Assembly: GCA_030248295.1 (NCBI GenBank)
Contig: JASANH010000647.1
Location: 682,001-746,000 of the forward strand
Direction of reading: 5' to 3'
Length of the DNA: 64,000 bases
Source of the DNA: Mesodorylaimus sp. YZB2_4
Taxonomy: Eukaryota > Nematoda > Enoplea > Dorylaimida > Dorylaimidae
Part shown: positions 53,753 through 56,700 of the stretch, piece by piece
How the letters are laid out: each line of letters starts with the position of its first letter
How positions within the stretch are numbered: position 1 is the stretch's first letter
Notes under the pieces: model-generated
Seen by the model: only the letters and a program-made list of their open reading frames with translations
Databases searched by the model: none
Told to the model about the DNA's origin: nothing
Program-made: the position numbers and the translations under genes

Positions 53753-56700
53753 GGCTCGTTTCGTCGAAGCATGGTTACTATCGGCACAAAGTTTCACCTA
53801 GTCGACCGGATGGGCTATATATGACCATTCGCTCGGGCGCATCCACTTTCATCAATTTCCCTCAGCACTAGTTCCATGCTTGGTTCAACACCAGCTTTAT
53901 CGATTTCGACCCGATTCGCCGACAAAAGAGCATATCAAGCGCGCGTATTTCATGTACCTTATACGAGTGATAGGGAGCGAGGAAGAGACTGCAGGCCGTC
54001 CTATCAGGGCCCCATTCCATTTTCGATCAACGTGCTGGCCAACCACGCCCACGTTGCCGCTGGCGCTTCGTTTCATTGAACTCTTCAATTAAGCTTTCCA
54101 CGCCCAGACCTTCATCTTAGCGCCCGACAGAGAGACCCAACCGCTTGCATATGCGCGATGCAGTTGTTACCACCAGCCAGACTCCATGTGCGTAAACACT
54201 TTTTTATGCGACTGAAAAGGTAAAATCGATCGATCGAGCAATGCCTCGTCTGCATACGAGCCCGCCTCGAGGACGGTGACCAGAGTGGATTAGGGATTGT
54301 CGGAAACGGAAAGAGAAGAATGGAAATATGCCTTTTTAGGTTTCTATCTCAACAAGAGATAGGCATTTAAATTAGGAAACACAAGCCCCATCTCCCAGAG
54401 CACATATCCGAATCAACAGCCATCGTTAAGGGCCACTATATTTCTCGCCAGCAAGGCCGGAAGTGAGAATAGCGTTTCCTGAAACGTTTTACTAAAACGA
54501 AAAATTGCAGTTGACTTTGGGAAAAGGTCTTTTAGAAAAAAGTCACAAGCGCTTAGACGAAAGGTGAACTGTTCGAACATACAGACATCCGCTTCCTGGA
54601 AAGACAAATGTTAATGCACGTGCTAAGACCAGTCAGAAAATGTTTTCTTGTCATTAGAAATATCACAGCATATTCTGACCTGACATGCATATGTGAGTTA
54701 TGAAAGAGTCATATGACACGATGTAGACAATGGCCAACTAACATTTTTGATGGACGGCAGGTGCTGATTGCTTCTGCTGATCGAAAACACGTATGTCGAC
54801 TTGACGTGTTGATGAAGGCCTTTTGAGAAATCATTCAAATAGTCATTTACTTGGTCATCGTCCCGCGTGTACCGACCATACTCTCCTATCTACTGTAGCG
54901 CTAAGCATAGGGAGCTTGAAGGTAATTGAACGTTCATTTCCGGAAATTACATTTCCAGGTTTATCAAGACCAACTAGTATGAAAAGTCAATTAAGCTTAC
55001 AACTAGCCCATATTATTCTCCTTTCAGAGGGGCCTTTTCAATAGTGCGACGTTGTTTTCACAAACCTACGTCAGTTGAATATGCCGCAAAAATTATAAAC
55101 ACGAAGAAGTTATCCGCTCGAGGTAAGCGAATAAGTCGATGTGTACATGAAAAAGTTACGTACTGTACTTGTGGCCGTTTTTTCAGATTTTCAGAAACTG
55201 GAACGCGAGGCGCGGATATGTCGGAAATTGCAACACGCCAATATTGGTATGTTGGACTGTGTGAGGGGTTCTGGCTGACGTGACAGAGACCGCAGCAGCT
55301 CTGCTTCAAGCTAAGGACCTAAAAATCGATGCCCGAATAGTACTGTATATGCAGATACACATTTGAATTTTTCTCTTTTTTAAATTTCCGCTCTGACTTC
55401 TAGCAAGGGTAGCATAGCCCTCTTAAAAAACTAGAATTTAATGCCAGTTTTCTTCGATCGACGCTAAAAAGTCCTCTTCGTGCTTCTGGTTTCCAACTTG
55501 TTTTGGCGCACGCATACGCATGGGGCCCAAACTCCTCGTTTGCGTTGTCATAAGTTAAATAGAGGTGGGAATTTAAACTTCCATTGTCACTGTTAGAATG
55601 CCGCATGATAAAAATTCGTGATCAGACATAAGCCGATGCTTGAAATAGTGAATGCGAGCGCTATTGCAGCCTCCGATTCCATATTTATGATATATATAAT
55701 CGATTTTTAAGCCCTCTCTGGGCCATGGATATAGCTTCTTCGAGTAACTGATATCCGCTTGCCTCTTATGCCCTCTTTGCCCACTTGGCATGACATTGCC
55801 TTCGCTTTATTTTCAGTACGCCTACACGATAGCATTCAAGAGGAAGGCTTTCATTATTTGGTCTTCGACTTGTAAGCTATAACATTTTCCCTATCAATTT
55901 TTTCAAGTGCAACCATTGGCACGCTGTTTCAGAGTGACTGGGGGTGAATTATTCGAGGACATAGTGGCGCGAGAGTTCTACAGTGAAGCCGATGCTAGGT
56001 ATGTGCCGAGCTGAACACGATGCAAGATCAATGGTTTTATCATTTCTCTTTTTTCTCCACCTCTTCTCCTTTAGTTCACACTGTTTCAACTTACATATTT
56101 TGCACATTTTCTTTATTGATTTTCATCAAAATCAGCCCCCGAAGTTTCTTTTCTTCGCTCTATCTCCAATTGTTGTGAGCATCAGATTAAATTTGATCTA
56201 GAATTCGCAAAAAATCTTCTCAGTTTTCTTTCATTTGGAATTAATTTTGTTCTATCGCTTGTTTTGTTTTTCTTTTTTCTAGTCACTGTATTTATCAGGT
56301 GTTGGAAGGTTGTTCTTTTTGCCACAATTACGATGTTGTGCATAGAGATATGAAGGTGAGTGGAATATATTGACAATTCTTTGTGTACTAATGGGTCCTT
56401 TCTTGGCTTCTCTTGTAGTCACTGCATTCAACAAATTCTTGAAAGCATATGCTATTGCCATACTAACAGCGTAGTGCACAGGGATTTGAAGGTAAACGCC
56501 TCGTGCCGACCTGTGGTGCCTGTTCTTCTCGCACGGCTCTTGTATGTCTGCCAATTCATGTCCTACCCTTTCGTGGTCCTAATCATAAAAATGGCACTCC
56601 GACCAGATTGGGCCCCGAGCCAAAAGGACACTGCACTGGTGTACCCTGACAAATGGACACTCCCAACTTTTAATCCATTACTTTGATTAGCCGTAAATGT

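What the first reader, a model, noticed from the sequence alone, without database searches (positions are those of the whole stretch)
56283..56491. Tandem mutually exclusive exons encode the CaMKII catalytic loop
Two 73-nt exons, 63 nt apart, have the same phase and both code for helix E through HRD-x-K. They agree at only 14 of 24 codons, but each keeps every catalytic residue. Both together would shift the frame, so splicing must choose. I know of no CaMKII in which the catalytic-loop exon itself is swapped; known variation is in the linker. Helix E and the loop neighbour the substrate groove, so the swap could tune specificity or rate. Exon A looks diverged but not decayed.
Basis: partly seen in the sequence, partly recalled or inferred. 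Interest (0 to 1): 0.9.

Follow-up and report, generated by a model that had tools for sequence, protein, structure and literature searches.

The report
Swappable catalytic-loop exons in CaMKII
A worm gene for the memory-related enzyme CaMKII carries two interchangeable versions of the exon that encodes the heart of its active site, and similar pairs turn up in other animals, so it looks real and conserved rather than unique to this worm.

Summary
Two 73-nt exons (A 56283-56355, B 56419-56491), 63 nt apart, same phase, AG/GT bounded, each encode helix alpha-E to HRD-x-K of a CaMKII gene and agree at 14 of 24 residues. Including both or neither gives an early stop. A second CaMKII gene in the assembly has the same pair. 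Between the two genes exon A shows purifying selection (dN 0.16, dS 1.2; neutral simulation P about 0.002). Relatives carry such pairs: isoforms whose compared kinase stretch differs only in this exon (Parascaris, Biomphalaria, Physella, Octopus, Haliotis) or models holding both exons (9 fetched). Mutually exclusive splicing is well supported, but no reads could be examined. The novelty claim fails: a tandem-duplicated-exon swap in the human CAMK2D kinase domain, beside the ATP site, is published (PMC9741552). What seems unremarked in the listings and passages I saw is the spread over nematodes, molluscs, an annelid and chordates. One ancient origin is favoured (Ser-to-Gly at position 122) but not proven (AU 0.92 against 0.08). 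What the swap does to the enzyme is unknown.

The parts
56283..56355 (+). Exon A, alternative catalytic-loop exon (Gly at CaMKII-alpha position 122, HRDMK)
   Evidence: counterpart in the C272 gene and in relatives
56356..56418 (+). 63-nt intron between A and B, with an ACTAAT at 56387-56392
56419..56491 (+). Exon B, canonical-type catalytic-loop exon (Ser122, HRDLK)
   Evidence: PDB CaMKII chains score higher with B than with A
55933..55998 (+). Upstream shared exon, ends in phase 2 (...SEADA-S)
56721..56823 (+). Downstream shared exon, starts PENLLLASK, includes DFG
53041..53090 (+). First kinase-coding exon recognised ([17 protein letters not shown]; its 5' limit not determined)
55028..55871 (+). 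N-lobe exons 55028-55122, 55187-55246, 55817-55871
56877..57620 (+). C-lobe and regulatory-segment exons 56877-56960, 57013-57107, 57259-57381, 57436-57519, 57578-57620
62197..62304 (+). Linker exon ([26 protein letters not shown]), limits approximate
63522..63959 (+). Hub (association) domain matches 63522-63593, 63676-63777, 63852-63959 (limits approximate); gene runs on beyond the window

Best explanation
A functional CaMKII gene with a pair of mutually exclusive, tandem-duplicated exons at the catalytic loop. The spliceosome joins the exon ending at 55998 either to A or to B and then to 56721. Shown: the anatomy, the frame logic, purifying selection on A between two genes, the same pair in a second gene, and like pairs in relatives. 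Inferred: transcripts with both or neither exon would be removed by nonsense-mediated decay, so each stable product is a complete kinase; the choice is made by regulated splicing factors, not by steric blockage, because the 63-nt intron is no shorter than the gene's other short introns (52-64 nt). Isoform A would be a catalytically competent kinase with an altered alpha-E helix (Gly for Ser at 122 and neighbours) and loop (HRDMK for HRDLK), changing turnover, stability or the docking of the regulatory segment rather than making a new enzyme. The pair probably descends from one old duplication; I hold this last part at lower confidence (see the section on the most novel reading) than the splicing part, to which the confidence below refers.
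For: exons, splice sites, frame; second gene with the pair; A: 16 nt and 6 aa differences, dN 0.158, dS 1.21; B: 14 and 3, dN 0.102, dS 1.65; neutral simulation 0.0019 and 0.0025 for A; 5 species with two isoforms identical at all 273 or 281 kinase residues compared outside the exon and different in it; 9 fetched gene models with both exons in a row; HRD and the Lys after it in all 23 exons compared; where the order of the exons is known, first exon Gly122 in 5 of 6 and second exon Ser122 in 6 of 6.
Against: No RNA reads or junctions were available for this species. Database isoforms are mostly annotated models, and the nine two-exon models are probably annotation errors. Exon A changes faster than B, and both faster than the rest of the kinase (dN 0.03), so some relaxation is possible. 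Trichuris, Strongyloides and Enterobius proteins fetched show only B-like exons. YN00 estimates failed and dS for the rest of the kinase could not be computed. Single origin is not statistically settled (AU p 0.08 for separate origins).
Confidence: 0.88

Rival explanations
1. Exon A is a decaying leftover of an exon duplication, seldom or never spliced in.
For: A differs more between the two genes (6 of 24 residues) than B (3 of 24); no reads seen. Fetched Trichuris, Strongyloides and Enterobius proteins show only B-like exons.
Against: No stop and intact splice sites in both genes; synonymous excess (P about 0.002); A-type proteins in Romanomermis, Parascaris, Steinernema, Necator and Haemonchus.
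Confidence: 0.06
2. The pairs in nematodes, molluscs/annelids and chordates arose by separate exon duplications (convergence), not from one ancestral pair. (This rivals only the origin, not the splicing.)
For: The 25-residue trees do not reject it (AU p 0.085 and 0.081; 0.112); mean identity of nematode A to mollusc/annelid A (0.62) is barely above that of nematode A to nematode B (0.59), and mollusc/annelid A is closer to its own B (0.66); the four fish and the Oikopleura first exons lack Gly122; PMC9741552 reports convergence of such events in other genes.
Against: Where order is known, Gly122 in 5 of 6 protostome first exons against Ser in 6 of 6 second exons; the higher likelihood goes to one origin.
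Confidence: 0.35
3. Exon A is a poison exon: inclusion together with B, or exclusion of both, sets the amount of CaMKII.
For: A+B and neither both give early stops, so the choice could regulate amount.
Against: A alone gives an open frame with the catalytic residues; its amino acids are under selection, which a poison exon does not need; A-only proteins are annotated in relatives.
Confidence: 0.04

Closest known systems
Human CAMK2D tandem duplicated exon substitution (PMC9741552, sections 10 and 17 read; PMC5740500, passages, counts four MXE clusters in CAMK2D)
   Same: CaMKII gene, tandem homologous exons in the kinase domain, a cluster of the swapped residues beside the ATP site; four fetched fish models hold two exons at exactly the position of A and B
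   Different: The text read does not print the human exon, so identity of position is likely but not shown; the fish first exons lack Gly122
Mollusc CaMKII isoforms (Biomphalaria, Physella, Octopus, Haliotis) and Parascaris isoforms
   Same: Two isoforms that, within the kinase stretch compared, differ only in this exon; one type reads LEG (LDG in Parascaris), the other LES
   Different: Annotated models; no description or function found in the papers searched
Mapk14 and FYN mutually exclusive kinase-domain exons (passages of PMC1431701 and PMC9741552)
   Same: Either/or choice of an exon inside a kinase domain, reported to change activity and specificity (Mapk14) or binding (FYN)
   Different: Other kinases; in FYN the exon covers the SH2-kinase linker and N-terminal part of the domain

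Membership tests
CaMKII | Ser/Thr kinase domain with AAK, HRD-x-K-PEN and DFG | tested here: met
   translation of splice models; PDB matches of a 59-aa stretch
CaMKII | Regulatory segment with RQDT autophosphorylation site and calmodulin-binding stretch | tested here: met
   [27 protein letters not shown] (role of the motif recalled)
CaMKII | C-terminal hub domain | tested here: met
   hub matches at 63522-63959; the last part lies beyond the window
Mutually exclusive tandem-duplicated exons | Adjacent homologous exons of equal length and phase | tested here: met
   73 and 73 nt, 14 of 24 residues
Mutually exclusive tandem-duplicated exons | Joint inclusion or joint skipping is unproductive | tested here: met
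   stops after model residues 140 and 123
Mutually exclusive tandem-duplicated exons | Transcripts use one or the other, not both | not testable with these tools
   no RNA data for this species; annotated isoform pairs in five relatives agree
Same event as human CAMK2D | Same exon position | tested here: inconclusive
   fish CaMKII models carry two exons at this position; the human paper places the event in the kinase domain by the ATP site but the text read gives no sequence
Single ancient protostome exon pair | A exons of different phyla group together apart from B | tested here: inconclusive
   AU 0.915 against 0.085 (LG+G4), 0.919 against 0.081 (JTT+G4)

The most novel reading that the evidence does not exclude
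One exon pair at the CaMKII catalytic loop arose before protostomes (perhaps before bilaterians) diversified and has been kept as an either/or splice choice ever since, marked by Gly or Ser at position 122; vertebrate CaMKII genes then fixed or re-used alternative versions. Ancestral CaMKII would have had two catalytic cores, not one, while the field has looked mainly at linker splicing.
Probability: 0.45. Interest if true: 0.68.

Novelty: new member of a known kind. Interest (0 to 1): 0.5.

Why it matters
CaMKII is among the most studied kinases, and a mouse-brain splicing study states that alternative splicing of exons outside the linker is uncommon (PMC5882894, passage). A conserved swap of the catalytic-loop exon would mean that many invertebrate CaMKII genes make two catalytic versions, which bears on enzymology, on neural work in molluscs and nematodes, and on which isoform has been cloned and assayed.

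Tried and rejected
Steric blockage as the cause of exclusivity: thought unlikely, since the A-B intron (63 and 58 nt) is as long as the two genes' other short introns (52-64 nt). Segmental duplication or haplotype as the source of the second gene: tblastx (E up to 1e-6, best row per 150-base bin shown) between the window with 10-kb flanks and 122,800 of the 123,395 bases of C272 gave, besides rows that follow the gene's exons, only 46850-47098 (two rows, 51% and 34%), 58137-58175 and a short match about 8.4 kb past the window, so no shared run of neighbouring genes; whether C272 is the same organism is not proven (GC alike). Dating the pair by tree: inconclusive. Identifying the species by 18S rRNA: the search did not complete; 'nematode' rests on the nearest protein of the 17 compared being Parascaris (92-93%) and is only moderately safe. 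Caenorhabditis: no A-type protein of that genus among the 120 listed of 7988, but the collection is clustered at 90% identity, so an isoform could be hidden; no claim of loss. Arthropods: the listed ones show B-like exons except an ostracod with Gly122 (Darwinula P0142); no claim either. Papers: ten searches; in the listings and the passages opened I saw no description of this swap in an invertebrate CaMKII; most listed papers were not opened and the library lacks most subscription journals. Passages of PMC2764345, PMC11088445 and PMC4801060 did not bear on this exon.

Rows dropped and choices: one search filled the first five residues of the Nucella B exon by assumption, blanked the first five of Owenia B and removed one residue of Oikopleura B to fit 25 columns; one search repeats the protostome test with gaps there and leaves out chordates. 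The 23 exons were picked by hand from the 73 distinct segments. Their A or B label is independent of sequence only where the exon order is known (6 genes: the window gene, the C272 gene, Steinernema, Dictyocaulus, Nucella, Owenia); for the others the label itself leaned on resemblance, so 'Gly in 12 of 13 A' is partly circular. Segments I could not place (for example P0077, P0121, P0136, P0139, with Ala122) were left out. No structure prediction was made.

Full report
What is there. The window holds most of a CaMKII gene on the + strand, from an exon whose 5' limit I did not determine (53041) to hub exons that continue past the window's end. Two homologous exons lie in tandem: A (56283-56355) and B (56419-56491). 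Both are 73 nt, take over a split Ser codon in phase 2 and leave in phase 0, and are bounded by AG and GT. They encode the end of helix alpha-E and the catalytic loop HRD-x-K. They are identical at 14 of 24 residues. B is the canonical type: a 59-residue stretch with B scores 105.7 bits against its best PDB chain (human CaMKII-delta), and the same stretch with A 95.0 against its best.

Frame logic. With A only or B only, the 310-codon model is open. With both, it stops after model residue 140; with neither, after 123; the C272 gene gives the same numbers. Splicing must therefore choose one if a kinase is to be made. That the wrong products are destroyed by nonsense-mediated decay is inferred.

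A second gene. The assembly holds another CaMKII gene on contig C272. Over 309 residues its kinase part is 95.5% identical in protein to that of the window gene; it lacks one intron that the window gene has, and it carries the same tandem pair 58 nt apart. Its A exon reads RCIQQVLEGCNFCHKHDVVHRDLK, its B exon [25 protein letters not shown] found no shared run of neighbouring genes. I read it as an old dispersed duplicate; that it comes from the same organism is assumed.

Selection. Between the two genes exon A has 16 base and 6 residue differences, dN 0.158 and dS 1.21 (NG86); B has 14 and 3, dN 0.102 and dS 1.65; the remaining 285 codons have dN 0.03, and their dS could not be computed. YN00 failed for every comparison. 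Random substitution of 16 bases gives 6 or fewer residue changes without a stop in 0.19% or 0.25% of 20,000 trials for A (each gene as start), and in 0.005% or less for B. So A appears to be kept by selection on its protein, though both exons change faster than the rest of the kinase.

Relatives. Three searches of the protein collection with an exon A region as query each listed 120, of 6507, 7962 and 7988 hits; 44 proteins were fetched. In five species two isoforms are identical in all kinase residues compared outside the exon (281 of 281 in Parascaris; 273 of 273 in Biomphalaria, Physella, Octopus and Haliotis) and differ in it. For the four molluscs the two are numbered isoforms listed with the same longest-contig length. 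Nine fetched gene models contain two such exons one after the other: Steinernema carpocapsae, Dictyocaulus, Nucella, Owenia, Oikopleura, Anguilla, Metynnis, Dunckerocampus and Anabarilius. In the four protostome ones the first exon is the A-like one (LEG in three, LES with HRDMK in Dictyocaulus); in the chordates 'first' and 'second' is all I can say. Three of the nine (Nucella, Owenia, Anguilla) trim the start of the second exon and six insert extra residues between the two, which looks like annotation software restoring the frame. A-type exons alone appear in Romanomermis, Necator, Haemonchus, Steinernema glaseri, S. hermaphroditum, Onchidium and Elysia. Fetched Trichuris, Strongyloides and Enterobius proteins have only B-like exons.

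Origin. Where exon order is known (6 protostome genes), position 122 (CaMKII-alpha numbering, from a recalled rat sequence) is Gly in 5 of 6 first exons and Ser in 6 of 6 second exons. In the larger hand-labelled set it is Gly in 12 of 13 A and Ser in 10 of 10 B, partly by construction; position 132 is Val in 10 of 10 B and Ile or Leu in 8 of 13 A; HRD and the Lys after it are kept in all 23. The coral and sponge proteins in the lists (P0095, P0144, P0145) have Ser, which suggests that A is the derived copy. One origin has the higher likelihood, but separate origins are not rejected (AU 0.085 with LG+G4, 0.081 with JTT+G4; 0.112). Mean identities speak only weakly: nematode A to mollusc/annelid A 0.62, nematode A to nematode B 0.59, mollusc/annelid A to its B 0.66. 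Chordate pairs are less like protostome A, so a bilaterian origin is open.

Mechanism. The A-B intron (63, 58 nt) is not shorter than the constitutive short introns (52-64 nt), so steric blocking is unlikely. An ACTAAY motif starts about 30 nt before exon B in both genes, and CTAAY occurs in none of the other 11 introns of 70 nt or less; such motifs are branch points or STAR-protein sites (recalled), so this is a lead found after the fact. Biochemically I expect a competent kinase with changed kinetics, stability or autoinhibition; nothing here tests that.

What is known. PMC9741552 (passages and sections 10 and 17 read) reports a tandem-duplicated-exon event in the human CAMK2D kinase domain, with residues beside the ATP site; its named families shared by vertebrates, arthropods and nematodes do not include CaMKII. 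PMC5740500 (passages) counts four MXE clusters in CAMK2D without saying where. PMC5882894 and PMC7991079 (passages) describe CaMKII splicing as chiefly a matter of the linker, the latter adding the exons of the hub. So the kind of event is known in this very family; the spread across phyla appears undescribed in what I could search.

Verdict. Real, functional by the sequence tests that could be run, conserved in several phyla, not unique. Interest 0.5.

Noticed in passing
50776-53477: Near-perfect inverted repeat around the first kinase-coding exon: arms 50991-51448 / 52769-53226 (458 nt, 100%), 51480-51624 / 52585-52729 (145 nt, 100%) and smaller ones, giving an antisense copy of the exon at 51126-51176. 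Real palindrome or assembly foldback.
   Followed up: partly
G000:C272 (L003 2939-7828): Second CaMKII gene with the same exon pair, lacking the intron that separates 56960 from 57013 in the window gene.
   Followed up: yes
56387-56392 and L003 6310-6315: ACTAAY motif in the A-B intron of both genes; CTAAY is in 2 of 13 introns of 70 nt or less, exactly these two.
   Followed up: partly
P0003, P0004, P0015, P0124: Public gene models that join both exons, some trimming the second, are probably annotation errors that hide the either/or choice.
   Followed up: partly
P0007 (Gigantopelta): This model repeats the next exon instead: PENLILASKAGSPAVKLADFD... followed by [21 protein letters not shown]..., perhaps a tandem duplication of the DFG exon.
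   Followed up: no
57740-57830: Intron after the regulatory segment carries repeated GTGTCAGT-like units.
   Followed up: no
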